A stretch of DNA of 64,000 nt, from NCBI GenBank assembly GCA_030998015.1, contig JARWMV010000240.1:1364001-1428000 (forward strand), read 5' to 3'. The position numbers and the translations under genes were made by a program. Positions 430 to 57,280 of this stretch are shown here, in pieces. The first letter of the stretch is position 1, and every line of letters starts with the position of its first letter. Under the pieces are notes generated by a model. It did not search any database and had not been told where the DNA came from. It worked only from the letters and a program-made list of their open reading frames with translations. This DNA is from Ceratorhiza oryzae-sativae (taxonomy: Eukaryota; Basidiomycota; Agaricomycetes; Cantharellales; Ceratobasidiaceae).

Positions 430-3400
430 TTGCAACTCTGCATCTCAAAGCCTTTTAGCCCAACCAGGCGTTTCCCATGGCAATGTTACAGACTTTGATA
501 ACGCGCTAGATGACTATATCAACGGATTAAAGGCCTACCTTGATGGTCTAGAATCTGGGGTAGTGGAGGGTGTCCCCGATCCCGCCAGGTATGCCCAACT
601 TAGTTTCCTGAACTACATACGACTCTGGTTTACTTATTGGCTCGCAATCGGAAGCCCGTTGAAATTTCTGCGCATACTTTTAACCTCCATCAACGACCTA
701 AAATTGCAAGGCGAATCGCATGGGGATGTGGATGGATTAGAAGAGTCACTCGAGTTTCAAGATCAGAGTTTATCATCAATCAATGCGGGAGTCACGCCAA
801 CGCTTGAGCTACCCGTGGGGTAGGAGATTTGCTAAACTTTCGGTTCGAGCGACTAGGAAATCTAGCAGACATTGGCGACGGTATCAAATACGCGACACGA
901 GCATTGGCACTGAGTTCGAACGACAACACCCAGACGCCTAGCTGTTTGAATAGTCTTGGTGTGTGGCGCAAACGTCGGTTCGAGCGGTTGGGAGAACTTG
1001 AAGATTTGGACAACGCCATCGAATGCCTTTCGAAATTGCTCGAGCTTACTCCCGAGCACCACCCAGACCGAGCAGCCTGTTTGATCAATCTGGGGAACTC
1101 GTGGCAGATTAGGTTTAAACAACTTGGGGACATCATAGACTTGGACAAGGCGATCGAGTGTCATAGTCGTCTCTCAGCCTCATTCCAGACGGGCATCCAC
1201 ATAAAGCTGGTTGTCTGAGTAATCTAGGAAACTCTTGGAGAATTCGGTTCGAGCGGCTCGGGCGCGTCATAGATATCGACAAGGCTATCGAAAGCCATGC
1301 GCTGGCGGTCGATCTCACTCCTGATCGGCATCCACATAAACCAGGTCGCCTCAGCAACCTTGGAAACGCGTTCCAGAGCCGATTTGGGCGTCTTGGCATC
1401 GAATCGGACTTGGACAAAGCAATCGAATTCCATACCATATCCGCCGAGCTCACTCCAATTGGCATCCGCACAAGTCGGCGTGCATAACCAATCTCGGAAA
1501 CTCGTTGCGGGGTCGGTTCGGCGACTGGGAAACATTGAAGACATCGACAAAGCAATCGAATATCATGCGTTGTCGGTCGAGATCACCCCCGAGGGTCATC
1601 CAGAGCGGCCAAACTGTTTGCAAAACCTCGCCAAGTCGTGGCAGAGTCGATTCGAGCGGCTCGGTGGCGTCGCGGATATCGACAAGGCGATTGAATGCTA
1701 TTCAAAATCACTCGATCTCGTTCCCGAGGGTCACGCGATCAGGCCAGGTCTTCTATACGGCATTGGCAGCCTAAGGATCACTCGATATGAGCACTTTCAG
1801 GAGGCCTCAGACCTCGAATCTGCTTTCGCATTCTTCGAGAAGAGCGCTCTGCTTCCAGTCGTTGATCCTCGAATCCAATTCGTCTCTGCATTGAACTGGG
1901 CTCGCTGTTCACATCTATTTGACGTGTCTCCTCTTCAAGCGTACCAAACGGCATTTGGCTTATTTCCGCATCTTGTTTGGCTAGGGCATACTGTTCAAGA
2001 GCGGTATCAGATAATTGCCAGCACAAGCAAATTGGCCGGAAGCCTTGCTTCAGAAGCAGCAGCCTGGGCTATCTCAGTCGAATCCTATGACACTGCTCTC
2101 GAGTGGCTGGAGCAGGGGCGCTCGATCGTGTGGAGCCAAATACTACAACTTCGTAAACCGTTGGACGACCTTGATCTCGCGGACCCGGAGCTAGCCAATC
2201 GCTTAAGCTCACGGCCTCTCAACTTGATGCCGCCAGCTCGTACTCGGGTGGAATGTCTCAGATAGATTTAGAGTCGCAGGCTCAGTATCATCACTCCTTG
2301 GCAGACCTCTGGGATAAGCTGCTTCCGAAGATTCGTCAGCTTCCTGGCTTTGAAGGCTATATGCTACCTATGAAGTCGTCCGACATCAAGAAAGCCGCTA
2401 CTGACGGACCGGTTGTCATTATTAACGCTGCTGAAAAACGCTGCGACGCTCTAGTGATCTTACCGCAGCGTGAAGATCTCCTTCATGTCCCGCTCAAGGG
2501 GGTGACGCAAGAGAGGCTCGTCGCGCTCCGCACGCAAACTATGATGTCAGTCGGTCACCGCGGACACAGGGGCGAGGAGACTCGGGGGTTTAAACGGAAA
2601 ATCGACGCCAATGACCCAAAAAAGAAGCTTCGACCGCTCGTAGAGCTATGGTCGGATATAGTTGGACCGATAGTCAGTTTGCTCGGCGGTCAGGTATGCA
2701 TGCCCATCGCTATTTTTTGATGAGATTGATAAATTGTCGCAATACTATAGCGTGGTACTCCCGTCGAAGAACTGCCTCACGTCACCTGGTGTACCACTGG
2801 ACTGTTGTCGTTCCTTCCGCTTCATGCTGCTGGTCCCTACGACGGTGTATCTCCGAACGCATTCGATCTTATCGTTTCCTCGTACACCCCAACCCTCGGA
2901 GCTTTGCTGCTCAGAAGCACTCAGGCCACTTCAGTACAAAGCGGAGTACTCGCGGTTGGCCAGGCAAATTCTTCAGAGCTCTCCCCACTACCAAAGACCG
3001 TAGACGAACTGGCCATCATCCAAAAGTATTGCCATGCAACTGGATTCCGCCAACTAGACGGAGGAGACGCGACAGTTTCGAGTGTGCTGAACGCTATGGA
3101 ACATTATGGCTCGGTCCATTTTGCATGCCATGCCGTTCAAGACCTCAAGAACCCAAGTCACAGCGCCTTCTATTTGCACGACGGTAAACTCACTCTAGAA
3201 GAAATCAGCAAACGCGCGTTTACGAACAAGGTGCTTGCTTTCCTATCTGCATGCCAAACGGCTACAGGCGACGAGGAATTACCCGATGAGGCGATGCACC
3301 TGGCAGCAGGGATGCTTATGGCTGGGTACCCGAGCGTGATCGCGACGATTTGGTCGATTATGGATAAAGACGCGCCAGAGATAGCAGACGCAGTGTATTC

Positions 3401-3536
3401 AGCGCTCGTACAGGATGGAAATCCCTGTCATAAAAATATCGCGAAAATACTTCATGTAGCTGTGGGGAGGCTGCGTGAAAAGGTAGGGGTAGAGTCGATT
3501 GAGTGCTGGGCACCATTCGTTCATATTGGCCTGTGA
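430..3536 (+). CDS. TPR-CHAT (caspase-like) protein, frameshifted
   Basis: About seven tetratricopeptide units, each with a D-[IL]-D-K-A-I-E core, lie at 830-1800. A helical linker follows, then a CHAT domain (Caspase HetF Associated with TPRs). The CHAT catalytic pair is visible as His in HFACHA (about 3118-3135) and Cys in LSACQTA (about 3244-3264). CHAT proteins are clan CD-type proteases or scaffolds linked to cell death and defence; the target here is unknown. A 56-nt intron (about 2694-2749, gtatgc...atag) lies before the CHAT core. Translation needs frame changes near 825, 1172, 1465, 1522 and 2203, each explained by one lost base. The stop is TGA at 3534-3536. The 5' end is uncertain: no in-frame ATG is seen before about 480. 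It may be a real gene with sequence errors or a recent pseudogene. Confidence 0.75.
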
Positions 3537-4107
3537 TTCAACGCTAGAAATTTGCGTATTCTGTTATTGTGTTAGCTATGGCGGTTAGGCTTTTCTCGTA
3601 CATAGGGTCATTTAATAGCGTTGCTGCTCGGTATCGATTATGAACCACGGATCGATCGCTAGGTTCAGTTTATTTGACATCTGAGTAACAATGCTGGGTT
3701 TATGTCGACCGCTATATAAATCCATGTATGCGCGGCCGAATGCATTGGATGTTTCGTCGCTTGTGGTATCGGTCCATCTGAATTCAGAAAAACAGGGACT
3801 CATTTCGCGTAGTGCTTTCGGGAAGCCACCCAATATACTTGTTTTGAAACACATAAATGGGCCTTTTTATGGCCATCGCTCCAATGCAATCTAGTTCTTT
3901 TCTATCAATATTCAGATAGTTGATGTGGGGCACGATTCAATCCGTTTTTCTTTTGTGGAGCCTCGGTACCGTGACCGATTGCTGGGTCTCTTGTGGGATA
4001 TCTAGCCCTGATTTTGCACCTCTCTCAAAAAACAGTAATTTACACACCCGCAGAGAGTGATTCAAGCTACATAAATTATTGATTCATTCGTTGATCCGAA
4101 ACAATGA
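3537..4107. other. Intergenic, nothing recognised
   Basis: AT-rich spacer between the TPR-CHAT gene and the convergent minus-strand GWDLIG gene. An 80-codon open frame on the minus strand (3612-3854) has no recognisable motif and no splice-supported continuation. Confidence 0.3.
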
Positions 4108-39022: not shown

Positions 39023-40334
39023 TGTTACAGGTCAGGGTACACTTGAATGTCTAGAGCTTAAGCAAATGTAGATATGTTAGTATACACTAATTGTACTCAA
39101 TACTTCTTAGACTAGAGTAAGAAGGCTCAAAGTAGTTGCAATGTGATCAAGTAACACTCAAGGTAGTCTTAATCTTTCACAGTGTAAACTGACTAAATTA
39201 TAGGTATCAAGAGCAAGACTACTATGGTCAGGTTCCCTTAGATATCTTAAATGTAGTTCAGCCCTAGTTGCTTGGACTAACTGATACTAATCTTAATACT
39301 AGACTTAAGCAATAGCTTATAGGATAGATGGTGGGCTGCCTAATGCATGTACTTCCTCAGCTACAGGTACTTAGATTTCCTCTAATAGCTGGTACTTAAT
39401 GTCACACTCAATCAGGCAATATTGTATCCTTATATATCTCTGTATATAAGATACAATGAATCAGACAGTATATAACTAATATGGTACTTTATTCCTCAGT
39501 ACTAGTTATATAAGAAATCACACACAGACAAGAGAAAAATAGAAAGAGAAAAAGGAAACCAATAACTGGTCTGGGTTGAGTAGAGGAGTGAAGGTGGTCT
39601 GGAAGGGCCTCAGAGGAGGTCCTTTTATACCCTGAGGAGGGCATTCCAGAGCCAAATAGATGCATGCATGCCAGTGCGATCATCAAAAGAGGGTACTGCT
39701 ATACTTGGGATACACCCTAGCCCAGTATAGGATATGAGAGTAAAGACAGGGTGTGGATTGAAGGCATTGATGCATCTGAGACCTGCTATTGGCTTGTAGA
39801 TCATATTATCATAGTATATACATGTAATGAATGGAGGCTACATCTCAGTGAGTCATAAAGTGAGTCAGAGAAGCTTCTGGATCAATTTGGAAGGCTCTCC
39901 TGACTCACTGGAGTCATTAGATCTTGATTGATGGTCCAGTAAGATTCTAATGATCTTCGGGCCATTCCGGCACAAGGATCCAGTGGATCGTGACAATCTT
40001 TGGGCAGCAGATACTGCTGAAGATTAGCTATCGATAGAGCATAAGGTCGCTTTGATAGCGTAAGCGGTTGCCGAGATATGAGCGGTGCAATGTTGTAATC
40101 AATATCTCCTGATAAGAGGAAATATCACAACCTCTGTATCTCTCTGAGATCTTATTGTAAAAACTTAATAAAATATGCGTTGGAAAGCGGGAAATTTGTA
40201 CTATTTAATGGAACGGAAAATAGTACAATTTGGAGTGCATACAAATTCAAGTATTTCACAATTTAATTACAGAGGCATTGCTTGAGGTTGGCAGAGCAGA
40301 CTAAAATAATAGAAAATGTTAGTGATCCATAACA
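39023..40334 (-). repeat. Solo LTR (1.31 kb), minus copy
   Basis: On the minus strand it starts TGTTATGGATCACTAAC and ends GACCTGTAACA, matching 54666-55976 in inverted orientation with scattered differences, several of them CpG-to-CpA. The TG...CA ends, an internal tataaaagg and an aataaa mark it as an LTR. Its flanks are aaacc (39018-39022) and ccagc (40335-40339), which do not match each other but match the flanks of the other copy. Confidence 0.9.
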
Positions 40335-41241: not shown

Positions 41242-41305
41242 TTAGAGATCAGAGTGATGATGGAGGCAATATCCATATAGAAAGGCATGCTCCTTTGGGC
41301 AGTAG
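41242..41305 (-). pseudogene. 3' end of an interrupted Cys/His-rich ORF
   Basis: The minus-strand frame ...YCPKEHAFLYGYCLHHHSDL followed by TAA (41242-41244) continues the frame of 53278-53537 once the chromovirus and one copy of its TSD are removed. Confidence 0.5.
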
Positions 41306-42058
41306 TGTTATGACCTGTCAAACGGACATAACAAAACAACCAAATATTTCTACAGATTTATGGCATTTTTCCTAAGCGGAACAAGCCATAAACAAGGTCA
41401 CGTGACCGGCGCTTAGCCGATTACGGTGGTTACCCTGAACTCGCTCCAGCATTTCTCTCCCATGTTACTGGAGCGAGGAGCGAGTTGTCACGTGATCTCG
41501 GCGCTTACAATCATTGAAGCGCCGGTGGTTACCCTGAACTCGCTCCAGCATTTCTCTCCCATGTTACTGGAGCGAGGAGCGAGTTGTCACGTGATCTCGG
41601 CGCTTAGATTCACGTGACCTCAGCGCTTACGGTGTTACCCTGAACTCGCTCCAGCATTTCTCTCCCATGTTACTTGGAGCGAGGAGCGAGTTGTCACGTG
41701 ATCTCGGCGCTTACGGCAGGATCACGTGACCTCAGCGCCTACCCTCGGACCTGCGCGGCTCTATAAGATTCGGAGCCACACAAACTTAAGACAAACAATT
41801 ACCTAACCCATAGTACTGTACATAACCTACACCTACTGCGGAGTGTGCTTAGATAATACGTCCGCAGCCACCGCAGCCACAGGTATATATAAGGAGGATA
41901 AAGCAAGACTGGACCCTCAGCTTGCTTTATCTTGTCAACCACCATAGACCATAACAAACACTGTAACTAGAACACTCAATACATACTGCATAGCACCAAA
42001 CCGTCAACGCAGCCACTACTTAAGTGCTCCACAAGGGAGCCTCCAGAGGGTCACGACA
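41306..42058 (+). repeat. 5' LTR of the chromovirus
   Basis: TGTTATGACC...GGTCACGACA. It contains three imperfect copies of a roughly 95-bp unit (from 41426, 41522 and 41630), each holding an inverted pair (gaactcgctccag / ctggagcgaggagcgagttg) and a GTCACGTGA E-box palindrome. A TATA box tatatataagg lies at 41884-41894 and the R-region start is predicted at about 41915-41919. Confidence 0.9.
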
Positions 42059-42060
42059 TT

Positions 42061-42072
42061 ATAAAGCAAGCT
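42061..42072 (+). promoter_or_regulatory. Primer-binding site, self-priming type
   Basis: ATAAAGCAAGCT, two bases after the LTR, is the exact reverse complement of AGCTTGCTTTAT at 41919-41930, about 30 bp after the TATA box and so near the predicted RNA 5' end. This is the geometry of Tf1/sushi self-priming. I saw no match to a tRNA 3' end. Confidence 0.65.
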
Positions 42073-42179
42073 CTTAACTTAACTAGTGGCGAACATAAGT
42101 ATACTGCACAGATACTAAGGGCTGAGTACACGAGAAAACCAGCTAACTCCTGTGATACATAAGAGAACACAAAGAAACT

Positions 42180-44009
42180 ATGTCACAGAGACCACAAACT
42201 CGATCTCAAAGCAGAGTGGCAAATAGTAGGCCACAATCACCCAAACCCATTGCTTCCCCAGAGGCTGAAGGTAACCCAGATGAGACCCTCCAAGGAATGC
42301 CAGGGGGGTTGCCACAAAACCCACGACCAGTGGCTCAACCCAACCCCACTCGGGCCCCCATCCTGGGAGGGGAAATAGGGGGAATACCACTCCGCAGCCC
42401 TCAACCGCCAATTCACCTGATAAATCCAGACCCAGAAGATATCTCAAATCCAGAGAGGGATGAGGTAGAAGATATGACCCGAACCATATACGAACAAGGC
42501 ACGCCTTGGCGGAAGAGGCAAGGACACAACCCCAGCCAGGTCCCGGAACCATAGCCACTGCCAACCCTATTCACACCATTGCCACAGCCATCAGGGCGGG
42601 GCTCAAGGAACTTAGAGACAATAATCATAGGGAACTAGAAAAGGCAATCACGGTATAAATCAGTGTCAAATATCACTAACCCGACAAGAAGGAAACGTGG
42701 ACTGGATGGTAAGGTCATGGAAACATCCAACAAAAATGTCCTCTATGTGGCAAAGAACCAGGACGACCTAAAAGCAGAAATGGGGAACCTGATAAAAGAA
42801 TTAAAGGACATCTCCATGGAAATAAACCGGGTACTGGGAATGCAAGAGCGAAAGCTCGAAAGCTTAGAGAAGAAAACCGAAAACACAGGGGAGATCCTAA
42901 TCGCACTAGAACAACGGGTAACCGATCTAGGAAATGAGCTCCGGAAAACAACTGAAGCAGGAAGGCCAAGGGAAAGGACAGAAGAAACCAGGGGAAGAAC
43001 TAGGGTGGTCATAGGAAGCCCCTCACGATCCCCCTCAGCCTCCCCAGTACGAACACCTTTTCTGGGAAGAACCTTCCAGGCTGAGTCCACAATAAGACCC
43101 CGAACAGAACCTCCATCCCAAGCAAACCAACCTACCCTTGCTGCAAACCACACTCCTAAGGAGGCGAGACTAGGGAGACCCAGCAAATTTAATGGGAAAA
43201 AGGGGAAGGAAGCAGAGAACTTCATAATCAGCATGGAACTTTTCTTTGCTGACTATGACGAATCAGCCTTTGATGACCGAAAAAAGATATCTGCTGTGCT
43301 AATGAACATGGAGGATGGGGAAGCAGCAAACTGGGCACAACCTTACCGCCGGAAACTACTAGCAGGCGAACACACAGGTATTCTTGCATCCTGGAAGGAT
43401 TTCAGGAAGGGATTCCTGGATGCTTTTAATGACCCAGTCATAAAGGAAAAGACCATCCGGAAACTAAGGAAATTAACACAGACCAAGAGTGCATTGGATT
43501 ATGCTACCCAATTCCGGATCCTGATCCAAGAGGTAGACTGGAACCAGGAAGCCCAAGGACCAATTCAGGGAAGGGTTAAAACCCGAAGTACGACAAGAGA
43601 TCTTAAGGATTGAAGTACTGGCAAATGAGGCTGAAGGTCCATCATATACCTTAGATCAATTAATTGACTTTGCCTGCAAAATGGATGACATGCAGTTTGC
43701 AAACCAGAAAATGAATACAAGGACCAGCAACTCATCAAATTCAACCTGGGCACCAGCGAAATACAAACAAGGGGGAACAAGCCTTTAGGGACCAGCGGCA
43801 AACAGGGGAATACCCAAACCAACAACATGGTAAGGATACCAAACAGTGAAAAGGACAGGCGAAGGAAAGAAGGACTCTGTATCAAATGCGGTAAATCAGG
43901 GCATGTCCTGAAGGAGTGCCGAGGCCAGTGGACCTACGACAAAGCTAAGATACAAGGGAAGGCCAGCAGACAAGTTGAGGAAGAAAGCAGCTCTGAGTCG
44001 GAAAACTAA
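42180..44009 (+). CDS. gag: Chromovirus Gag
   Basis: Starts MSQRPQTRSQSRVANSRPQ at 42180. A Pro-rich N-terminus and a coiled coil (about 42770-42960) precede a retrotransposon-gag domain (about 43170-43600, KFNGKKGKEAENFI ... LRKLTQTKSALDYATQFR), and a CCHC zinc knuckle CIKCGKSGHVLKEC lies at about 43878-43919. Frame breaks (near 42500-42660, 43580 and 43780) need one-base corrections. It encodes the capsid/nucleocapsid that packages element RNA. Confidence 0.85.
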
Positions 44010-44104
44010 TTGGTCCTACCACTTCCATGTTGGAGGACCCCAATATAACCCCTACCGCAGATGTATGTTACCTCAAGAAGTCTAGTAATCAATCAATAAT
44101 ATAC

Positions 44105-47100
44105 ACTACGGTAGAGGGAATCATGGAACCAGCTAAACGCTGATTGACTCAGGATCTTCAACCAACTTCATCGATAAGGCCTATTCAAGGGAAAAAGGGA
44201 TTCCAACCACTCCCCTCAAACACAAGAAATCAATTGTGGCCATTGATGGAAATGAAATCAAGGATGCCATAGAAGAAAGGGCAGAACTAAACATCGAAGT
44301 GGAAGGGAAGACACTAAAATGCTCCCTTTATGTAATGACCCTAGGTGACACAGACATAGTCCTAGGGAAAGAATGGCTTGAAGAAGCAGAACCTATCATA
44401 GATTGGAAAGACCTTACCATCTCATACCCAGACGAAATCAAGGCAAGGGCAGCAAGTGAAAGCCTACAAATCCCAGAAGAATTTAGGGATTTTGAAGACC
44501 TATTTGGGGAAGAAGGTTTCCGAGAACTTCCACCCCACCGAGGTAACCTAGACTTCAAAATGGACCTGATCGAGGGAGCGGAGCTGCCAAAGCCTGCAAA
44601 GAGGTACAGTATGTCACCAGCAGAAACAAAGGCGCTCAGGGAGTACCTAGAGGAGGAACTAAGAAACGGGAAAATAAGGCCCAGCCAGTCAGTTGTAGCT
44701 GCACCCTGTTTCTATGTGAACAAAGCAGATGGAGGGCTTAGGTTGGTAGTCGACTACCGTAAGATGAATGACATCACCAAGCCAGACAGGTTTCCACTTC
44801 CAATCCAAATAGAATTGATTGAGAGACTGAAGGATGCAACCATCTATTCAAAAATGGATGTTCGATGGGGGTTCAACAACATCAGGGTAAAAGAGGGAGA
44901 CGAATGGAAAACAGCTTTCAGGACAGGAGAAGGCCAGTTTGAATGCTTGGTCATGCCATTCAGTAAAAGAAGGACCAAGAACCTTTACCAGGTTCATGAT
45001 GGAAAAGTTCCGTGACATAATAGACGATTATGTGGTAATCTACATGGACGATGTACTAGTGTTTTCCAGAAACAGGGAAGAACAGTACAACATGTCAGGG
45101 AAGTGTTAAGAAGAATGAGGGAAAACCACCTCTTCCTCAAACCACACAAGTGTCAGTTCTTTGTGAAGGAGGTAAGCTTCATTGGAATTGTCATATCCCC
45201 AGAAGGGATATCGATGGAAAAGGAAAAGGTAAAGGCAGTTCTAGAATGGCCAGAACCTAACACAGTAAAAGAAGTCCAAGCCTTCCTAGGCTTCGTGGGG
45301 TTCTATAGAAGGTGGATAGAGAAGTTTAGCACCTTAGCCAAACCCCTCACAGATCTCACCCAAAAAGATGTCAAATTCCTGTGGGAAAGAAAACAACAGG
45401 AAGCATTTGAAGCTATCAAAGAAGCAGTAGCAAGAGAACCGGTCCTGATCCACCCAAACCCAAACAGGCCATACATACTGGAAACAGACCCTCAGGAGTG
45501 GCCATGGGGGCGGTACTAAGCCAAAAGGGTGATGACAACCGATTGCATCCAATTGCCTTCCTATCGAAGAGCTTCACCCCACCAGAGAAAAATTATGACA
45601 CCTACGACAAGGAGTTGCTTGCAATTGTTAGGTCCTTAGAGCACTGGAGGTTATACTTAGAAGGGACAGAGGAACCTATTGTGATATACACTGACCATAG
45701 GAACCTCCAGTACTGGCAAAATGCCCAGATGTGGAATAGAAGGCATGCCAGATGGTATCTCACTCTGGCACCCTTCAATTTTCAGATTGTGTACAGACCA
45801 GGGAAACTCTCACAGAAGCCAGATGCCCTTTCCAGAAGGAGCGACCATGGGGATACCCCTATGGAACCACAGATCATGATTCCAGAAGAAAGGTTCATAG
45901 GTTTCATGGCAGAAGTACAGGGGAATTTCTGGGAAGAGCTTAAAGAAGCTCAGGAAGAAGACGAATCTATCAGATCCTTAAGGCTGAGTGTGGCAAATAA
46001 AGAACAACTACCGCCCTCAGTACAGAAGGAATTTAGACGGTATGAAATGAAGGAGGGCCTATTAAGGTATGACGATAGGCTCTACATCCCAGATGACAAG
46101 GACTTGAGGTTGAGTCTCCTTGAGGAGTGCCATGACGCCCCAGTGGCAGGTCATCAGGGACAAGCCCGAACACTAGAATTACTATCAAGGGATTACTATT
46201 GGCCAGGAATGAAGGCCCAAGTAAACCGATACGTGGAATCTTGTGAAACGTGTCAAAGAAGCAAAGGACACAAACAAGGCACTCCCTGAAGTCCTTACCA
46301 ATCCCATGGAAACCATGGGCAGATGTCGCATATGATTTCATCGTCAAATTACCTGTCTCAAAGGGGTACGACAGTATTTGACAGTTGTAGATCGCTTCTC
46401 CCGGCAGGCCCATTTTGTACCATGTCTGGAGAGCACCAATGCAGAAGAACTGGCAGAAATATTCATAAGGGAAGTATGGAGACATCACGGGACCCCAGAA
46501 ACCACTGTCTCAGACCGAGGGCCAACCTTTAACAGCCAATTCCTAAAAGCCCTATACAAAGGAATTGGGACAAAGCCCAGATTCTCCACTGCTTTCCATC
46601 CAGAAACAGATGGTCTGTCGGAAAGGACAAATCAATGGGTAGAAGGGTTCTTAAGAACCTTCTGCAATTATAGACAAGATGATTGGGTAAAATGGTTACC
46701 CATTGCCGAATTCTGCCATAACAACCACGTAAATGCTACAACAGGACAAACCCCATTTGAAACAGTATATGGAAAAAACCCAAGATGGGTTGTCCGAGAG
46801 GGAGAAGAACCATCTGAGGCACCCGCTGCAGACAACATGCGTAATCAAATGGAAAAGGTATGGGATGAGGCAAGAGCCTCAATGGAATTACACCAACAAA
46901 TGGAAAAGAAAGGGAGGGAATTCAAGGTAGGAGACAAGGTTTGGCTGCTCCTAACAAACCTCTCGTCCAAGAGACCCTCCAAGAAACTGGACAACCGAAA
47001 AGGGGGGCCCTTTGAAATCACAGAAAAGATCTCATCCCATGCATATCGCCTGGACCTACCTAAAACTATACGTGTACACAATGTATTCCATGTAAATCTC

Positions 47101-47435
47101 CTCTCGCCATTCACAGAAGATAAAGACTTCCGAAGAAGGCAGGCCAGCCACCACCACCAATCATAACGGAAAAAGGAGAGGAGGAATACAAGGTGGACCA
47201 CATTGCAAATTATGAATGGCGGAATGGTGAGCTGTTTTACCAAATCAGATGGAAGGGCTACGACCCAATAGAAGACACAATGGAACGTGCCAGCAAGTTT
47301 GCTGACATGAAAGAGGTTCTAAATGACTTGCAAAGGCACTTACCAGACGCACCAATGCCAGTCAAGTCAAGTCAGCACTCAGGTGACTCGAAAGGCAGGC
47401 CAAAGAGAACCAAACGAGGATCTGGAAAGCTTTAA
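44105..47435 (+). CDS. pol: Chromovirus Pol: PR-RT-RNaseH-IN-chromodomain
   Basis: Protease LIDSGSSTNFID at about 44140. Reverse transcriptase 44590-45110 with GLRLVVDYRKMND, a KMDVRWGF block and the catalytic VIYMDDVLVFS at about 45034. RNase H from about 45470 (YTDHRNLQYW). The integrase zinc finger (H...H...CETCQRSK, 46126-46260) and DDE core follow: Asp in YDFIVKL-preceding text at about 46325, SDRGPTF, and Glu in ETDGLSERTNQ. A GPF block and a chromodomain (YKVDHIANYEWRNGELFYQI, WKGYDP, 47190-47300) close the ORF at TAA 47433-47435. One-base breaks lie near 44136, 44965, 45085, 45490, 46288 and 47155. Confidence 0.9.
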
Positions 47436-47523
47436 AAAGAGCCATCCAGGATACCCAAGAAAGGCCAGAGCCTGCTCTACTACACCTCACTTGCACCACA
47501 ACACACCTGCGAAACCCCAAAAC

Positions 47524-49793
47524 ATGCCTTTCGTCACTCACCCAGTCGCACATCCCAACCGTTACACCCCACTTGCTGAAAATCAGGTGGCCCCACTTCG
47601 GCAGCCACCCACCACCAGGCGGCCAGCACCCTACCCTGGCAGGGAAAATCGTCCTAAACCAGGGATGTACTGCTCCAGTGTGGAAGACGCCCAGAGGTAT
47701 GCCAAACGACTGTTGCCAGGGGCTAACCTAGTGTACATCCCAAAGAAGTTAAGGGATGAAAGGAACTGGATTGACGATGACAAGTACCTGGATCCCAGGT
47801 TAGGGGTCCTGACATGGCATGGAAGCCGGAAGCCAACAACAAGAAACGCCTTGTTAAGAACACTGATGTATGTCGTCGACAATATCGTGGGACCAACAGT
47901 CGACGTGGTGACCAAGGCAGCAAGACAACAGAGGAGGGCCACAGGCCAAATGGCAGATGGAGGGGACTGGGAGGTGGAGCGCCAGGCAAAGGCATTGCTG
48001 GAAGAATGGAAGTTGACACCAGCTGCACTGTATGTGGGACTGCTCGAAGCAACTACCACTGATGAGATGTTTACTGCTATCAGGACAAAGCAGGCAAACA
48101 TGAATGACTTCCGAAATTGGGTGAAGGTAGAGGTGCTGTGCCAGGCTCCTGCAGCCAGAACTTGCCAGAATTCTGGCTAAAATTCCAGCGAATTCCGGCG
48201 TGCCAGTTGCCAGTGCAGGTGCCAGAATAGCCTCAAGGGTGCCAGAGTCCTAGGCGGAGTCCTGCAGTACTGGCATACCTGCATACCTGCATACCTGAAT
48301 ACTGGCACATTGTCACCTGTACACGACCACCACGGATTGCATATATTAAGCACTCATAAAATGCGCAAAATTCAGCGGATCAAATTGTACTTTACTTGAT
48401 TACAAACGGTTAAGAAATGAGCAGTATCGGCGCAGAATCGTCTAAGAAAAATATTCAGGGGGATGTGCAGATGTTCAAGCTCGCTATCCTGAGCTCTAAT
48501 TGGGGCGATATACATACCAATCGACTCTTCTCACTGAGAGAATCGAATGCACATATTTTCATAATAAACGAACGCTTTTATCGAAAGTTATCAGCGATAT
48601 AAAGGGGGAAACCCCTGAACAGCGCCACAAGCGCTAGTGAAACCAGCCGTGCAAACCTCGCTCCCTTGCGCGGAGTCGATGCGCATTATCATAAGGACTC
48701 TATATACCAAAAACCAGCCTGATTGAAGGTGTTTTAGCTGGTGAAAACTGGGGAACAGCGCCCTGATGCTGAAAACCCCCTGAAATGCGCCATGGACACC
48801 CACACAGTGCTATTCTGGCTTTCTTAGTATCACAGACAGATTCAGGGATGCTTATTGCCCTATCTCAGGTACCTGAAACATCTGGAACAAGCTTATAACA
48901 TAAATTTCCGACCATGTGCAGTGATTCTGCTGGGTTGACAGTGAGGTTGCCTGCACACACCCCGGTTCATAGTTATCCAGTCAATGTATTTACTAGATAT
49001 AATGTCAGTAGGGGTTTTTCAAGCTCAGGAGAAAAGGCTAGCTGGTCGGATAAGCTTCAAACAGCTTTCTTTGTGGTGAAATAGCATGTGCGCATTTCCC
49101 AGAATATTTCCTGAGCATCAATTTGGAGCGAACTATGCATTATCGAATTTTTTGCGCGGAGCAAATGACATATCTGTGATCTCCTGATTTTTGCGCATTT
49201 AATGAGCTACTTTGCGAGAGATTGTGGTGAGGTTTATGGCCCTGGAAATGTTGGCCACAAAGACCCGAACAAAAGAACTGCGTAAAATTTGCCAGAATGA
49301 ATTTCGTATGAAACGTGCTCTATATCATTGGAATGCTCTCTCTTCTGCGCATCTAATGAGCTATTACACAACTTGATGTGGTGAGTTCTGACCATAGCCA
49401 GTTGCAGGAGTCCCGGGATTCTGGCATGCTCCTGCACCTGCCAGAATTCTGGCACGGACTCCGGCAACTGGCGAGCCAGTGCCAGTGCCAGTGCCAGAAT
49501 GGCCAAAAAGCGCAGGAGTCCTGCTGCAGGTGCCGGAGTCCTGCAAAATTCTGGCACAGCTTCTCTAGGTGAAGGTGCACCCAAACAAAAACACCAATTA
49601 CGACACTGATATGACAAGCCTTACATCAAGCCTAGAATCACTGGTCGTGGCTGAGGAAGAAGCCAAGCCAGAAATAAAGGAACCCACCCTGGACCCAGCT
49701 GCGGAGGAAGCCAAACAGGACTGGGACCGGTGGGAAAACGAGCTTGTCGAAGCTCTGGAGGAGGTGCCACTGTTGGAACCAACCCCCATATGA
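47524..49793 (+). CDS. Accessory sense ORF of the chromovirus (split by a hAT-like insert)
   Basis: Starts MPFVTHPVAHPNRYTPLAEN at 47524, shortly after pol. It contains a Pro-rich N-terminus and a globular part (EDAQRYAKRLLPGANLVYIP ... ILSxx-like helices, EVERQAKALLEEWKLTPAAL), then reaches NWVKV at 48127, where a 1440-bp element intervenes. It resumes in frame with HPNKNTNYDTD at 49571 and ends in an acidic tail (EEAKQDWDRWENELVEALEE) at TGA 49791-49793. I do not recognise the family. The restored length is about 275 residues. It sits where envelope or accessory ORFs of other LTR elements lie, but has no signal peptide or membrane segment. Confidence 0.6.
48128..49567 (-). mobile_element. 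Non-autonomous hAT-like element, copy 1 (1440 bp)
   Basis: The ends are TAGAGGTGCTGTGCCAG and, inverted, TAGAGAAGCTGTGCCAG, bracketed by the 8-bp TSD GGTGAAGG (48120-48127 and 49568-49575). 8-bp TSDs and TA[AG]NG ends are hAT traits. Subterminal regions are packed with TGCCAG/CTGGCA words. No transposase ORF. The whole body is related in reverse orientation to 61457-62891 (for example 48600-48660 against 62385-62440). Confidence 0.85.
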
Positions 49794-49875
49794 CCACTTT
49801 GCCTCCCACAAATTGTCTCCCGAATGTATAAGAGTTTTATTTTTTCTTTTACACACCAAACTTAATACATTTCTT

Positions 49876-50415
49876 TTACTCTCTATTTTTACGTTTGCCC
49901 TTGAGGGGCTGGGTATAGGGCTTCTTGCCCCTGTTATCCTTCTTATTGGTCCAAACAACTGACCGGGTAGTGGGCTGCAGCCAAGGAGCCTCCCCCCCTG
50001 GGAGGTCGGCCATGTAGTTCTGGAAACACCCAGAACCAGACGCTGCAAAGGGCGAAGCCTCATCAAACAAGGGAGCAGAGCCCTCCTTGAAGAATTCGGC
50101 AAGAGCAGCCTGGTGAGACCGCTCCTCAAAGGACTTGTACTCCTGATCAACGAGCGCCCAGACATGCTCAAGGGTGGCCTCATGGGCCCGACCATCAAGG
50201 AGGATGCGCTCTTCTACAGAACGAGTTAGCTACGTGAGAATGATGAAGAACGAACACACATACCTGGCACCCCACAGAAGAACCAATCCCCAACACCTTG
50301 ATAGAAGTCTTCAAGGGAGGCGTCACACACAGCATCACAGTAGGCACAGTACTCCCCCTCAGGGAGACCAGCAGGTGCAGTCAAGGGGATTGTAGTTAAG
50401 GGAAATAACACGCAT
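49876..50415 (-). CDS. Antisense spliced Cys-rich gene inside the chromovirus
   Basis: It starts at ATG 50415 (MRVISLNYNPLDCTCWSP). After an apparent one-base loss it continues EGEYCAYCDAVCDASLEDF and ends VP at the donor. A 50-nt intron (50214-50263; gtatgt...ctgtag, with a gctaac branch site) joins EERILLDGRAHEATLEHVWA and a second exon with GSGCFQNYMADLPGGEAPW, closing with a very basic tail (KKPYTQPLKGKRKNRE) at 49876. About 165 residues; family not recognised. The C-x-C and C-x2-C-x3-C spacing suggests metal binding. It is divergent from the Rep-like gene. An intron on the strand opposite to the genomic RNA would survive retrotransposition, so the gene may be carried as cargo. Confidence 0.6.
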
Positions 50416-50855
50416 AGTAAAGAACGGGATGAGGAAGGAAAACAACAAAACCACAAACATTAAAAAAAATCACGGTGCAACACAATAACTTGCACAAACA
50501 TCAAAACAAGGACTGGTCAGGTGACACCAACAGACACGTGACCATCTGCCAGAAAACAAACAACAAAGCATGGGAATCACATGACCTAGCCTAGTCACGT
50601 GAATATACGCTATCCCCTAACTACCGGAGGGGTCGGAGAGGGGGCACCGACCGAAGTGGGGGAGCGGAGGCCCCGAGCGTAGCGAGGATCAAGGCCGACA
50701 CGGAGGAACGGATGGGAGGGCACCCCTCGGAGATGCGTCATCACCGAAATAAGGTCATGTGATCACAACAAATGCAAGACGGAGTCATGTGACAATCAAA
50801 ACGGACCTTGCAGCTTATATAGACAAGCACAAGGCCCGAGATAACCTGCACTCTC
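50416..50855. promoter_or_regulatory. Divergent intergenic region of the antisense gene and Rep
   Basis: Contains four GTCACGTGA-like words (about 50530, 50595, 50757 and 50787; some as CATGTG), the same palindrome as in the LTR repeats, a GC-rich block with the inverted pair GGTCGG (50631-50636) and CCGACC (50647-50652), and a tatatagac TATA-like element at about 50817 before the Rep ATG. No TAATATTAC-type nonanucleotide was found. Confidence 0.45.
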
Positions 50856-52182
50856 ATGCTCTCTTCCCAGTCCCCAAATACCGCTAAAACTGTAAACGAT
50901 GCTAAGCGGAAATGGATCGAACGCGGCAACACCCCAGCCAAGCGGATCAAGCGAAGGGCAGAGGTCGGCGTCGCCATCGCCAGCGCCCTTGGTATCAAGC
51001 CGAGCCCCCTCGCCTGCTTCTATGCGGCCTACGCCGACGGATTGAGGGTCTGAAGAGCTGACCGAAACCGCACCGGCCCCTCAGTTCCGCGTCCAGACCA
51101 GGGCGGTGCTGCTGACCTGGTCGAAGCTATGCGATCAGCCCTCAAGTGGGCTCGTCGCCCGATACGAGGCGTTCTGCCGCCAACGGCCAAATCATTGGGC
51201 GACTTTGGCAGTGGTGGAACGCCACAACCCCGAGGAACCGAACTACGACCCAGCCCGGCCCCTCCATGTCCACGCCCTCTCCATCAGTCAGGAGCGGAAG
51301 GGCGGCTGGAACACCCAGAACACCGGTTCTGGACTTCGAGGGCAACACCCCAACATCCTGCCGAAGGACCTCAAGGACGGACCAGGAGGCAACCCAGCAA
51401 GGGATGCCTTCAACTATCTTTGGAAGGACGTTGGAGCTAATGGCGAGGAGATAGAGGACCTGATGGCGGGGGACCTGACCTTGGAAAGGTTGGAGGAGAT
51501 TTTGGTAAAGGGAAAGGGCGGAAAAAGGTCAAGGATGGAGGCAGACTTGGAGGATGGGACGGAGATTGTTGCCTCAGCAACAAAACAGGAGTACTACCAG
51601 GCGTTCAAGCGCCTCCGCCCCCTCCAGATGGTGACGACGTGGAACTCGGTACAAGCATATGCCGAGTACACATACAAGGAAGACCGGGGTTGCATGCCTG
51701 CAATCCCTGTGGAGCTAGAGGTCCCGGAAGACTGGGAGCACATCGACCGAGCAGACAGATGGTTTGCCGAGGAAGTCGAGAAGAAGGGAAGAGGGGTGCG
51801 CCATCGCATCCTGGTGATAGAAGGAGAAACTGGAACGGGGAAAACGGCATATGCATGATCCAAGGGCTGCCACAGCCGGATGTGCAATGTGTGGAATATG
51901 GGCAACTTGTCGGAAGATGCCGACATTTGGATCCTGGATGACATGGTCCAGTCGAACGGGAAGTACTCGCTCAAGGCCCTGAGCCAGTACGAGGCGGACT
52001 TCACAGGCAGGTACGCGCATGTGAAATCGATGAAGGTACGGCCAACAGTCATTCTGGGAAATAGCCGGTTGGCAATCATGAAATGTTGGTCGGACATAGA
52101 GGGGGAAGAAGGGGACCTATGGGTATCAAGAAATGTGGAATGGGTGTATGCAGGAGGAAAGCCATTCTTTGTATTCCCTTAG
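50856..52182 (+). CDS. Geminivirus/CRESS-type Rep-helicase-like protein
   Basis: A basic N-terminal extension from ATG 50856 (KRKWIERGNTPAKRIKRR, possible nuclear signal) is followed, after a one-base shift near 51053, by a HUH Rep endonuclease domain. Motif I is LLTWSK (about 51112); motif II is HVHAL (about 51271), with its two histidines; a geminivirus-like HPNILP follows; motif III is YLWK (about 51415), with the nicking Tyr. A superfamily 3 helicase follows: Walker A GETGTGKT (about 51824), Walker B DIWILDDM (about 51925) and motif C PTVILGN (about 52046). An in-frame TGA at 51856-51858 stands where Arg is expected (a CGA transition). The order matches rolling-circle Rep of geminiviruses and genomoviruses. 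Its place between pol and the 3' LTR is the surprising part. Confidence 0.8.
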
Positions 52183-52314
52183 AATAATTTATGGTACTGT
52201 ACAACTTCTGCTATGCCCATCCAAACAGTTGGGCTTTCTGAGAAGAAGCAGACAAATCCTCACCCCTAAATAACCTCCACAACAAAGAAAAGAAAAACAA
52301 TCTCATGTAACGGA

Positions 52315-52409
52315 GAGGTTAAGGGGTCTAGCCTGACTCAGCCTGACCTCATCAAACGATACTGAATCAGCCGAAAGGTCGTTGGTTCAAGTCCAGCGCC
52401 CTTAACCTC
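52315..52409 (+). ncRNA. tRNA-like fold near the 3' end of the chromovirus
   Basis: An 11-bp perfect stem (GAGGTTAAGGG with CCCTTAACCTC) closes about 73 nt that include a second stem (CTGACTCAG with CTGAATCAG, one mismatch), a small ccGAAAgg arm and a T-arm GTTGG-TTCAAGT-CCAGC carrying a perfect Pol III B box GGTTCAAGTCC (52384-52394). The 5' part resembles a degenerate Ser/Leu A box. Outer words aatctcatg/catgagatt also pair. It is not a canonical tRNA: the acceptor stem is too long and no anticodon can be assigned. A tRNA-derived fragment or a structural RNA signal is possible. Confidence 0.4.
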
Positions 52410-52476
52410 CTTGGTGCATGAGATTCCTTTTGCATAAGGAACTAAACCATGTCTCGAGGTCCCCCAAGACATGTCC

Positions 52477-52490
52477 AAAGGGGGGGATAA
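52477..52490 (+). promoter_or_regulatory. Polypurine tract
   Basis: AAAGGGGGGGATAA directly precedes the 3' LTR, the position and composition expected for the plus-strand DNA primer of a Ty3 element. Confidence 0.8.
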
Positions 52491-53272
52491 TGTTATGACC
52501 TGTCAAACGGACATAACAAAACAACCAAATATTTCTACAGATTTATGGCATTTTTCCTAAGCGGAACAAGCCATAAACAAGGTCACGTGACCTTGGCGCT
52601 TAGCCGGCGTTTACGGTGGTTACCCTGAACTCGCTCCAGCATTTCTCTCCATTGTTACTTGGAGCGAGGAGCGAGTTGTCACGTGATCTCGGCACTTACG
52701 GCAGGATCACGTGACCTCAGCGCTTACAGTGGTTACCCTGAACTCGCTCCAGCATTTCTCTCCCATGTTACTTGGAGCAAGGAGCGAGTTGTCACATGAT
52801 CTCAGCGCTTAGGGAAGGGTCACGTGACCTCAGCGCTTACGGTTGTTACCCTGAACTCACTCCAGCATTTCTCTCCCATGTTACTTGGAGCGAGGAGCGA
52901 GTTGTCACGTGATCTCGGCGCTTATGGCAGGATCACGTGACCTCAGCACCTACCCCTTGGACCTTGCGCGGCTCTATAAGATTTGGAGATGCACAAACTT
53001 AAGACAAACAATTACCTAACCCATAGTACTGTACATAACCTACACCTACTGCGGAGTGTGCTTAGATAATACGTCTGCAGCCACCGCAGCCACAGGTATA
53101 TATAAGGAGGATAAAGCAAGACTGGACACCTCAGCTTGCTTTATCTTGTCAACCACCATAGACCATAGCAAACACTGTAACTAGAACACTCAATACATAC
53201 TGCATAGCACCAAACCATCAACGCAGCCACTACTTAAGTGCTCCACAAGGGAGCCTCCAGAGGGTCACGACA
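52491..53272 (+). repeat. 3' LTR of the chromovirus
   Basis: A direct repeat of 41306-42058 with the same TGTTATGACC start and GGTCACGACA end, three internal units and TATA box. It differs from the 5' LTR by small indels and base changes, so insertion was not very recent. Confidence 0.9.
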
Positions 53273-53277
53273 AGTAG

Positions 53278-54665: not shown

Positions 54666-55976
54666 TGTTATGGATCACTAACATTTTCTATTATTTTAGT
54701 CTGCTCTGCCAACCTCAAGCAATGCCTCTGTAATTAAATTGTGAAATACTTGAATTTGTATGCACTCCAAATTGTACTATTTTCCGTTCCATTAAATAGT
54801 ACAAATTTCCCGCTTTCCAACGCATATTTTATTAAGTTTTTACAATAAGATCTCAGAGAGATACAGAGGTTGTGATATTTCCTCTTATCAGGAGATATTG
54901 ATTACAACATTGCACCGCTCATATCTCGGCAACCGCTTACGCTATCAAAGCGACCTTATGCTCTATCGATAGCTAATCTTCAGCAGTATCTGCTGCCCGA
55001 AGATTGTCGCGATCCACTGGATCCTTGTGCCGGAATGGCCCGAAGATCATTAGAATCTAACTGGACCATCAATCAAGATCTAATGACTCCAGTGAGTCAG
55101 GAGAGCCTTCCAAATTGATCCAGAAGCTTCTCTGACTCACTTTATGACTCACTGAGATGTAGCCTCCATTCATTACATGTATATACTATGATAATATGAT
55201 CTACAAGCCAATAGCAGGTCTCAGATGCATCAATGCCTTCAATCCACACCCTGTCTTTACTCTCATATCCTATACTGGGCTAGGGTGTATCCCAAGTATA
55301 GCAGTACCCTCTTTTGATGATCGCACTGGCATGCATGCATCTATTTGGCTCTGGAATGCCCTCCTCAGGGTATAAAAGGACCTCCTCTGAGGCCCTTCCA
55401 GACCACCTTCACTCCTCTACTCAACCCAGACCAGTTATTGGTTTCCTTTTTCTCTTCTATTTTTCTCTTGTCTGTGTGTGATTTCTTATGTAACTAGTAC
55501 TGAGGAATAAAGTACCATATTAGTTATATACTGTCTGATTCATTGTATCTTATATACAGAGATATATAAGGATACAATATTGCCTGATTGAGTGTGACAT
55601 TAAGTACCAGCTATTAGAGGAAATCTAAGTACCTGTAGCTGAGGAAGTACATGCATTAGGCAGCCCACCATCTATCCTATAAGCTATTGCTTAAGTCTAG
55701 TATTAAGATTAGTATCAGTTAGTCCAAGCAACTAGGGCTGAACTACATTTAAGATATCTAAGGGAACCTGACCATAGTAGTCTTGCTCTTGATACCTATA
55801 ATTTAGTCAGTTTACACTGTGAAAGATTAAGACTACCTTGAGTGTTACTTGATCACATTGCAACTACTTTGAGCCTTCTTACTCTAGTCTAAGAAGTATT
55901 GAGTACGATTAGTGTATACTAACATATCTACATTTGCTTAAGCTCTAGATATTCAAGTGTACCCTGACCCATAACA
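54666..55976 (+). repeat. Solo LTR (1.31 kb), plus copy
   Basis: Inverted partner of 39023-40334, starting TGTTATGGATCACTAAC and ending GACCCATAACA, with tataaaagg at about 55371 and aataaa at about 55506. Its left flank is ggttt (54661-54665) and its right flank gctgg (55977-55981). These match one flank each of the minus copy (as reverse complements), not each other. Confidence 0.9.
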
Positions 55977-56587
55977 GCTGGGCACCAGGCTGCACCTGCT
56001 CCACAAGTACCCCCTCCTGCACAAATACCTCAACCCCAACCAACTGTTGGAGGAAGCACCATCAAGGTAAAAATGGCATCCCCTACCAAGTTTGATGGCA
56101 GTAAGCAAGAGGATGCAACCTCATTCCAAATCTCTTGTATGAGGTACATCACCACCAATATGCCCAACACTACAGCCAATCAACAAATCACCTATATCAC
56201 ATCATACCTAGATGGGGCTGCAACTGAGTGGGCAAATGCATACTTTGAACAAGAGATTATCAACCACACCAACATCCCTTGGCTGCACAATACCAACCTA
56301 TTCTGGCAAGAATTCAGGGTACAATATAGCAATGTCAACTGCAATGAAAACTATCACAAAAAATGGCAGAAGCTAAAGCAAACCAAGACAGTGCAAGACT
56401 ACCTCACACTATTCAACCTAAATTCAACAGGCCTTGGATACAACAATGCTGCCCTCCACAACCAGTTCTATGCAGGACTGTCAGATGACATCTGAAATTC
56501 CATGGTGGTCCAAAATTATGACCCAACCACACACACCCTTGCAGAAGTCACCCAGAGGGCACTGGACATTGACTGAGACCTCATCTC
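55977..56587 (+). pseudogene. C-terminal part of the old gag
   Basis: Continues the frame of the 40335-40630 fragment (GHQAAPAPQVPPPAQ), then a Ty3-type gag domain (KFDGSKQEDATSFQISCMRY ... YLDGAATEWANAYFEQEI ... NQFYAGLSDDI). TGA stops follow at about 56493 and 56575, where Arg (CGA) would fit, a cytosine-deamination signature. A copia LTR cuts it at 56588. Confidence 0.75.
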
Positions 56588-56608
56588 TGTTGAATGATCC
56601 CACACATA

Positions 56609-57280
56609 TGTCGTGACCCTCTGGAGGCTCCCTTGTGGAGCACTTAAGTAGTGGCTGCGTTGATGGTTTGGTGCTATGCAGTATGTATTGAGTGTTCTAG
56701 TTACAGTGTTTGCTATGGTCTATGGTGGTTGACAAGATAAAGCAAGCTGAGGCGTCCAGTCTTGCTTTATCCTCCTTATATATACCTGTGGCTGCGGTGG
56801 CTGTGGATGTATTATCTAAGCACACTCCACAGTAGGTGTAGGTTATGTACAGTACTATGGGTTAGGTAATTATTTGTCTTAAGTTTGTGTGGCTCCGAAT
56901 CTTATAGAGCCGCGCGAGGTCCGAGGGGTAGGTGCTGAGGTCATGTGATCCTGCCGTAAGCGCCTAGATCACGTGACAACTTGCTCCTCGCTCCAAGTAA
57001 TCAATGGAGAGAAATGCTGGAGTGAGTTCAGGGTAACAACTGTAAGCGCTGAGGTCACGTGACCCTTCTGTAAGCGCCAAGATCATGTGACAACTCGCTC
57101 CTTGCTCCAAGTAACAATGGAGAGAAATGCTGGAGCGAGTTCAGGGTAACCACCATAAGCGCCAGCTAAGCACCGAGGTCACGTGACCTTGTTTTATGGC
57201 TTGTTCCGCTTAGGAAAAATGCCATAAATCTGTAGAAATATTTGGTTGTTTTTGTTATGTCCGTTTGACAGGTCATAACA
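56609..57280 (-). repeat. Solo LTR of the chromovirus family
   Basis: 672 bp, minus orientation, TGTCGTGACC...GGTCATAACA, matching the LTRs at 41306 and 52491 but with only two of the internal units. It is bounded by the 5-bp TSD ACATA (56604-56608 and 57281-57285) and lies within the copia 5' LTR. Confidence 0.88.

What the first reader, a model, noticed from the sequence alone, without database searches (positions are those of the whole stretch)
50856..52182. A geminivirus/CRESS-type Rep gene inside an LTR retrotransposon
A Rep with HUH motifs (LLTWSK, HVHAL, YLWK) and an SF3 helicase (GETGTGKT, DIWILDDM, PTVILGN) lies between pol and the polypurine tract of a complete Ty3 element. Rep-like sequences are known as integrated relics in fungal genomes; one carried as apparent cargo of a retrotransposon would join rolling-circle and reverse-transcribing replication in one element. 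It might be domesticated, a passenger, or a relic of a DNA element that inserted into one ancestral copy.
Basis: partly seen in the sequence, partly recalled or inferred. Interest (0 to 1): 0.88.

Follow-up and report, generated by a model that had tools for sequence, protein, structure and literature searches.

The report
Virus replication gene inside a retrotransposon
In a fungal genome, an LTR retrotransposon family carries, downstream of its integrase in at least 101 places, a gene with the motifs of the Rep replication enzyme of small circular DNA viruses and the substitution pattern of a protein kept by selection, so these elements likely use a DNA-virus-type enzyme alongside reverse transcription.

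Summary
A Ty3-type chromovirus (LTRs 41306-42058 and 52491-53272, target duplication AGTAG) carries a Rep-like gene between pol and the polypurine tract. The window copy is broken; 8 of 26 fetched copies are open throughout. HUH motifs I-III and SF3 Walker A, B and C occur in order. Profile support stays below threshold (best Gemini_AL1_M 19.5 bits, cut-off 24), so this is a very divergent Rep; all named relatives found are from Ceratobasidium. It is no relic of one copy: 101 of 131 integrase places have a Rep helicase match about 3 kb downstream, same strand, including integrases only 68-70% identical to the query; no clean empty site was seen among the few unlinked places read. Between two subfamilies the Rep frame shows pN/pS 0.17, 0.12 and 0.07 in HUH, central and helicase parts, the other frames 1.19-2.25. 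Rep is therefore an old, selected gene of the element. Its role (most likely nicking and unwinding element DNA, perhaps rolling-circle amplification) is inferred; no canonical origin was found. Nearest precedents: Rep genes in rotifer Terminons and in a Tuber transposon. Nine literature searches listed none in an LTR retrotransposon.

The parts
41301..41305 (.). target site duplication AGTAG, 5' copy
   Evidence: sequence read directly
41306..42058 (+). 5' LTR, TG...CA
   Evidence: direct repeats at spacing about 11.2 kb; ends read
42059..42072 (+). likely self-primed primer binding site (12 nt complementary to LTR 53133-53144)
   Evidence: sequence comparison by eye; inferred
43087..44012 (+). 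gag region (approximate, mapped from copy L012): capsid and CCHC zinc knuckle
   Evidence: Pfam Retrotrans_gag 3.2e-12, Ty3_capsid 9.2e-9; zf-CCHC_5 0.00075, below its cut-off; all in L012
44013..47435 (+). pol: RT, RNase H, integrase, SH3 and chromodomain; broken frames in this copy
   Evidence: Pfam on window pieces and on copy L012
47436..48128 (+). ORF3, first part: unknown protein of about 300 aa, under selection
   Evidence: pN/pS 0.185 for far pairs; related ORFs in L115-L117
48129..49567 (.). separate mobile insertion interrupting ORF3; 9-bp duplication 48120-48128 / 49568-49576
   Evidence: absent at this site from the fetched copies whose alignment spans it; same unit inside pol of L025
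49568..50500 (+). rest of ORF3 and region before Rep; 49568-49881 is replaced or diverged in some copies
50515..50793 (+). Rep upstream region: a 61-bp unit (about 2 and 3 copies in the two elements measured) and TCACRTGA palindromes that are otherwise found in the LTRs
50816..50822 (+). TATATAG, possible Rep promoter
   Evidence: sequence; function inferred
50856..51050 (+). frame-A start: N-terminal stretch that seems conserved in its own frame, probably joined to Rep by frameshift or splicing
   Evidence: pN/pS 0.28 in frame A against 0.74 in Rep frame for the 180-nt overlap; joining inferred
51046..51858 (+). Rep frame, first part: HUH domain, central part, Walker A; ends at a premature stop in this copy
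51859..52182 (+). Rep frame, second part: Walker B, motif C, C terminus, stop
52183..52476 (+). untranslated stretch between Rep and polypurine tract
52477..52490 (+). polypurine tract
   Evidence: sequence
52491..53272 (+). 3' LTR with 113-bp tandem units carrying TCACRTGA palindromes
53273..53277 (.). target site duplication AGTAG, 3' copy

Best explanation
A divergent CRESS-type Rep gene (HUH endonuclease motifs plus SF3 helicase motifs) sits at a fixed place in a fungal chromovirus (Ty3) family and carries the signature of purifying selection, so it is likely a working accessory gene of the retrotransposon, predicted to nick and unwind the element's own DNA copies. Shown: position, copy number, motif conservation and selection. 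Inferred: after reverse transcription, Rep would act on linear or circular cDNA (LTR circles), helping to process or amplify it before integration; expression would come partly from its own promoter, which shares an iterated palindrome with the LTR; the N terminus would be read from frame A and joined to the Rep frame by a frameshift or by splicing. The gene was probably captured from a CRESS-DNA virus or plasmid before the element subfamilies of this genome diverged.
For: Anatomy: LTRs, duplication, Gag, RT, RNase H, integrase, chromodomain. Motif columns in alignment A2: Walker A G, K, T, Walker B DD and motif C N in 23 of 23; HUH histidines 23/23 and 21/23; Tyr 21/22, Lys 19/21; motif I Thr 16/21. 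Linkage: 101 of 131 integrase places have a Rep helicase place on the same strand under 4.5 kb downstream (median 2966, 5-95% 2870-3682); 112 of 131 within 14 kb. The old element L116 (integrase 68% identical) has a decayed Rep, 47-75% identical piece by piece. Selection between subfamilies, Rep frame (other two frames): HUH 0.17 (2.07, 1.31), centre 0.12 (1.69, 1.19), helicase 0.07 (1.80, 2.25). Rep is about as constrained as pol (0.22) and ORF3 (0.185). 51 of 95 scored Rep places have no stop in the matched part, and 8 of 26 fetched copies have neither frameshift nor stop over the whole frame.
Against: No profile match reaches a cut-off; own-genome searches with PF08283 and PF00799 did not find the Rep loci. 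Both AlphaFold models were poor (mean pLDDT 33 and 48), and fold searches with the second gave nothing. No geminivirus-type nonanucleotide lies in the window element; 1 was seen in 20 fetched copies (in L013, which holds two elements); no inverted repeat of 9 nt or more other than a palindrome was found before Rep in the two stretches searched. The selection signal rests essentially on one deep contrast (20 copies against 6), so its pairs are not independent; close pairs show no frame-specific signal (Rep frame 0.45, third frame 0.50). 18 of 26 fetched copies are damaged. 43 of 154 Rep places have no integrase in the scored list (only 131 of 914 integrase candidates were scored). The 3' half of Rep goes with the 3' end of the element (r 0.98), not with integrase (r -0.07). 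No expression, circle or nicking data exist.
Confidence: 0.6

Rival explanations
1. Rep is kept by the element as a counter-defence protein, for example to relieve silencing or DNA methylation of the element, as geminivirus Rep does in plants; its nuclease and helicase activities would not be used in replication.
For: Geminivirus Rep down-regulating plant methyltransferases is reported (work cited in PMC6338049, passage seen). CpG changes among singleton substitutions, 42 of 165 in Rep and 45 of 105 in pol, would fit methylation of the element. No origin was found.
Against: Catalytic columns of both domains are kept, and the helicase part is the most constrained, which a pure decoy or repressor would not need.
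Confidence: 0.2
2. Rep and its flanks are a selfish passenger module riding in the element: it is selected for its own spread by recombination between elements and does nothing for the retrotransposon.
For: The Rep helicase half and the element 3' end behave as one exchangeable block (r 0.98), uncoupled from integrase (r -0.07) in 25 copies; some copies pair a diverged integrase (71-82%) with a common-type Rep. 43 of 154 Rep places have no listed integrase and were mostly not read.
Against: The 26 near-complete Rep copies fetched lie between element flanks, though most were picked for carrying Rep; the HUH half does follow integrase (r 0.51); the fixed distance to integrase and template switching at the 3' end explain the block without autonomy; no termini of its own were seen.
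Confidence: 0.12
3. The sequence is a decaying relic of a DNA element that inserted into one ancestral copy and was copied along passively.
For: The window copy is broken, 44 of 95 scored places have a stop in the match, 18 of 26 fetched copies are damaged; sub-threshold profile scores.
Against: Purifying selection in one frame only, between subfamilies; open copies exist; Rep present in lineages with integrase only 68-70% identical.
Confidence: 0.05
4. The protein is not a Rep but an unrelated P-loop ATPase with chance HUH-like motifs.
For: No significant profile, PDB or fold match.
Against: Six motifs in the right order with nearly constant spacing; 0 of 60,000 shuffles; conserved catalytic columns; Gemini_AL1_M aligns over nearly its whole length just before Walker A in 5 of 9 members.
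Confidence: 0.08

Closest known systems
Ty3/gypsy chromoviruses of fungi (Tf1/Tf2-like; likeness to Tf1 priming recalled)
   Same: LTRs, 5-bp duplication, Gag, RT-RNase H-IN order, SH3_Tf2-1 and chromodomain, likely self-priming
   Different: two extra genes, ORF3 and Rep, between pol and the polypurine tract
CRESS-DNA virus Rep (Geminiviridae/Genomoviridae type)
   Same: HUH motifs I-III with YxxK, SF3 Walker A, B and C in order (motif I-III definitions from PMC6668415; the rest recalled)
   Different: below Pfam cut-offs; inside a retroelement; no nonanucleotide origin found; an extra N terminus partly in another frame
Terminons (giant Penelope-like retroelements of bdelloid rotifers; PMC6431247, passages seen)
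   Same: a reverse-transcribing element that can carry a Rep protein; the authors suggest circular intermediates
   Different: Penelope-like, telomeric, no LTR-type integrase; host is an animal
Geminivirus-like transposon of Tuber melanosporum (PMC3198968, passages seen)
   Same: 42 Rep-like genes or remnants in a fungal genome, all but one alike and in a mobile element
   Different: 37-bp terminal inverted repeats and transposase ORFs; Rep frame interrupted in the published consensus. [quoted passage not shown] 'LTR' and 'gypsy' do not occur in its text
Bdelloid LTR retrotransposons with captured ORF3s (PMC5408684, abstract and passages)
   Same: an enzymatic gene captured downstream of pol in an LTR element
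   Different: captured genes are GDSL esterase, DEDDy exonuclease or env-like; the word Rep does not occur in its main text

Membership tests
Ty3/gypsy chromovirus | LTRs with TG...CA ends and a short target duplication | tested here: met
   AGTAG on both sides
Ty3/gypsy chromovirus | gag, then RT-RNase H-integrase order | tested here: met
   Pfam on copy L012 and window pieces
Ty3/gypsy chromovirus | chromodomain at the integrase C terminus | tested here: met
   Chromo 26.0 bits, cut-off 25.1
CRESS-type Rep | HUH motifs I (UUTU), II (HUH), III (YxxK) | tested here: met
   definitions from PMC6668415; conservation (motif I Thr only 16 of 21)
CRESS-type Rep | SF3 helicase Walker A, B and motif C (definitions recalled) | tested here: met
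   23 of 23 at key columns
CRESS-type Rep | score above the curated cut-off for Gemini_AL1 or Gemini_AL1_M | tested here: not met
   best 19.5 bits against 24; Gemini_AL1 E 0.23 in 1 of 23
CRESS-type Rep | HUH fold of the N-terminal domain | tested here: inconclusive
   low-confidence models; no usable matches
CRESS-type Rep | nicking and rolling-circle initiation | not testable with these tools
   needs biochemistry
Endogenous geminivirus/genomovirus | origin with nonanucleotide in a stem-loop | tested here: not met
   none in the window element; 1 in 20 copies; no stem-loop in the two stretches before Rep that were searched
Endogenous geminivirus/genomovirus | capsid gene next to Rep | tested here: inconclusive
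   ORF3 has no match in the protein search or Pfam
Terminon | Penelope-like RT without LTR-type integrase | tested here: not met
   LTRs, RNase H and integrase present
Tuber-type geminivirus-like transposon | terminal inverted repeats and transposase ORFs | tested here: not met
   LTRs with duplication instead
Helitron | RepHel protein of over 1,500 aa | tested here: not met
   open frames of 429-445 aa with SF3 motifs; size criterion from PMC6431247

The most novel reading that the evidence does not exclude
A retrotransposon with two replication modes: it copies itself by reverse transcription and then multiplies its circular cDNA by Rep-driven rolling-circle replication before integration, using LTR or Rep-promoter palindromes as Rep-binding iterons. 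It would be the first LTR element known to merge the CRESS-DNA and reverse-transcribing strategies.
Probability: 0.22. Interest if true: 0.95.

Novelty: new variant of a known kind. Interest (0 to 1): 0.82.

Why it matters
It shows a DNA-virus-type replication enzyme kept by selection inside a reverse-transcribing element, at about a hundred places in one genome, and relatives of the protein occur in other Ceratobasidium genomes. It makes directly testable whether retroelements can use rolling-circle enzymes on their DNA intermediates, a possibility that the passages read only suggest for rotifer Terminons. It also gives a likely route by which CRESS Rep genes spread in fungal genomes.

Tried and rejected
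Pfam, NCBIfam, PHROGs and PDB sequence searches gave no match above a cut-off. Two AlphaFold jobs on shallow alignments gave poor models; Foldseek was run on the second only and was uninformative. Scans of viral contigs found no relative; one search returned 74 loci, mostly parts of contigs far longer than a CRESS genome, used only as background. tblastn of P0009 against plasmids gave only E 9 matches. ORF3 search: none of 1334 candidates passed. The idea of a tRNA gene downstream of Rep was dropped: ARAGORN and Rfam found none there. A profile of known Reps for comparison could not be built with the tools left.

Relic and single-insertion readings were rejected by selection and linkage. By eye, ten of the 40 pol places had no Rep at the expected distance and looked like possible empty sites (an eleventh, on C243, has its Rep 11 kb away). 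Nine of the ten were fetched: five have a nearly whole Rep with frameshifts or stops in some (L029, L031, L032, L034, L035), L030 a partly deleted one, L036 ends with its contig, L033 and L037 are interrupted by other sequence before Rep. One (C38:9266) was not fetched. L115 (integrase 60%) has an ORF3 relative and no Rep in 4 kb, but is interrupted by an insertion; L117 (66%) loses similarity to L116 just before Rep. Whether Rep-less outgroups exist therefore stays open. One search was a first linkage count with fewer Rep places (78 of 132); one search replaced it.

Full report
What is there. The window lies in a 48.8-Mb genome of 253 contigs. The named relatives of the Rep protein are all from Ceratobasidium (47 and 66 proteins listed, the rest unnamed metagenome entries), so the host is probably a fungus of that family; this is inference. 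The element runs from 41306 to 53272 with a 5-bp duplication AGTAG. In copy L012 Pfam finds Retrotrans_gag, Ty3_capsid, RT, RNase H, integrase zinc finger, SH3_Tf2-1 and a chromodomain, each above its cut-off, and the integrase core below it. The sequence after the 5' LTR is complementary over 12 nt to the LTR near its likely RNA start, as in self-primed Tf1-like elements (read by eye; family knowledge recalled).

The Rep gene. The six motifs are in one frame. The window copy is broken, but open copies exist: L002 has a 442-aa ORF; of 26 near-complete fetched copies 8 have no frameshift and no stop over the whole Rep frame, 18 are damaged; of 95 Rep places scored among 231 candidates, 51 have no stop inside the matched part, mostly residues 100-443 of P0022, and 44 have one or more. 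The protein family is isolated: 66 proteins at E up to 10 among 7997 scored candidates, the weakest at 1e-24. Gemini_AL1_M is hit below cut-off, best 19.5 bits over positions 11-106 of 107, just before Walker A. Key motif columns are nearly invariant, motif I less so, and a six-motif pattern did not occur in 60,000 shuffles. I call it a divergent CRESS-type Rep with that caveat.

Position in the family. Twenty loci, chosen because they carry Rep, show Rep between the same flanks (in L016 a nested insertion hides pol, L013 holds two elements). The less biased test starts from integrase: one search scored 131 of 914 candidates and listed 132 rows; I dropped one row, the second piece of a split match on C18. 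One search scored 150 of 189 helicase candidates; I added four Rep places known, with approximate starts. Of 131 integrase places 101 have a Rep helicase place under 4.5 kb downstream on the same strand (median 2966) and 112 within 14 kb; the eleven beyond 4.5 kb may hold nested insertions or be chance neighbours. By integrase identity, within 14 kb: 73 of 76 at 95% or more, 33 of 42 at 85-94%, 6 of 13 at 59-84%. 19 integrase places had no Rep within 14 kb, and 43 of 154 Rep places had no listed integrase; both lists are capped, and most of these places were not read. Integrases of 68-70% with Rep at the usual distance, and L116 (68%) with a decayed Rep, 47-75% identical piece by piece, next to ORF3, show that the association is old. 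No clean empty site was seen among the few unlinked places read.

Selection. Among 26 Rep copies, 109 of 325 pairs have dS above 0.15; their pooled pN/pS is 0.164 in the Rep frame, 1.49 and 1.19 in the others; pol gives 0.22 against 0.72 and 1.17 (118 pairs, all shallow) and ORF3 0.185 against 0.99 and 1.75 (124 far pairs). By region, over 84 far pairs of 25 copies: HUH 0.17, centre 0.12, helicase 0.07, the other frames 1.19-2.25. Close pairs (dS below 0.1) show no clear frame signal: 0.45 in the Rep frame, 0.50 and 0.85 in the others, which fits neutral decay of single copies after insertion. The far pairs are mostly one contrast between two subfamilies (20 against 6 copies), so the number of pairs overstates the evidence. 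The helicase half goes with the element 3' end and not with integrase, while the HUH half does follow integrase (r 0.51); recombination of this kind does not produce a frame-specific signal.

Expression clues. In the first 180 bases of the Rep ORF frame A is the more constrained one (0.28 against 0.74); the untranslated stretch upstream gives 0.52-0.75 in all three frames, so 0.28 is a moderate signal; the 36 nt before the Rep frame opens are too short to tell, and the next 110 nt favour neither. Some AG-Ba gene models also begin in a frame-A-like sequence (by eye). The ATG at 50856 belongs to frame A. I infer one protein that begins in frame A and shifts or splices into Rep. Upstream lie a TATA-like box and a 61-bp unit, about two and three copies in the two elements measured, with TCACRTGA palindromes. 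In 20 loci these sites fall almost only there (4-8 each) and in the 3' LTR (3-9); exceptions are L013 (11 more, a second LTR), L009 (1) and L016 (2). In the window 38 matches to the 11-mer with up to one mismatch, both strands counted, stand against 4.0 expected; 33 lie in LTRs or before Rep. They could be host bHLH sites (recalled, E-box) or Rep iterons; I favour host sites shared by both promoters.

Mechanism. Shown: a conserved, selected gene at a fixed place with endonuclease and helicase motifs. Inferred: it acts on the element's DNA. Rolling-circle amplification of LTR circles is the boldest version; the lack of a nonanucleotide and of a stem-loop before Rep in the stretches searched weighs against a canonical origin, not against a different one. 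Counter-defence is the main rival.

Known work. Passages of PMC6431247 report Rep proteins in Terminons and suggest circular intermediates. Passages of PMC3198968 report 42 Rep-like genes or remnants in Tuber, in a TIR transposon, and some endogenous ssDNA-virus sequences inserted in host genes or transposons. PMC5408684 (outline, abstract and passages) reports other captured ORFs in LTR elements. Passages of PMC6668415 give the motif definitions and of PMC6338049 the silencing lead. Searches listed, by title and start of abstract, no paper on a Rep in an LTR retrotransposon; the library holds only open-licence papers.

Noticed in passing
window 48129-49567; L025 2538-3974: A 1.44-kb mobile unit with 9-bp target duplication; in L025 the same unit sits inside pol at window position about 45922; most of it matches C3 and C38 at 99%.
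   Followed up: partly
window 54666-55977 and 40002-40334: Another mobile family: 333 bp are 100% complementary in inverted orientation, and the 1.3-kb unit interrupts L026, L033 and L115 and flanks the element in L010.
   Followed up: no
window 56608-57280: An inverted LTR of the same family, apparently solo.
   Followed up: no
window 47436-49790 (interrupted): ORF3, about 300 aa, selected (pN/pS 0.185), no homologue in protein or Pfam searches, but related ORFs in elements with integrase 60-68% identical. It is in frame with pol after one stop in L009, L023 and L028.
   Followed up: partly
window 52316-52405: A tRNA-like stretch (B-box-like word, terminal stem GGTTAAGGG/CCCTTAACC) between Rep and the polypurine tract; not called by ARAGORN or Rfam.
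   Followed up: partly
proteins P0022, P0044, P0023 (metagenomes): These Rep relatives have an in-frame insertion of about 24 aa, or a start, after GLVAR that looks like a retained intron; L002 lacks it.
   Followed up: no
C57:68444, C31:55556, C159:17116 of G000: Elements with a diverged integrase (71-82%) but a common-type Rep (helicase 95-98%), probable recombinants.
   Followed up: no
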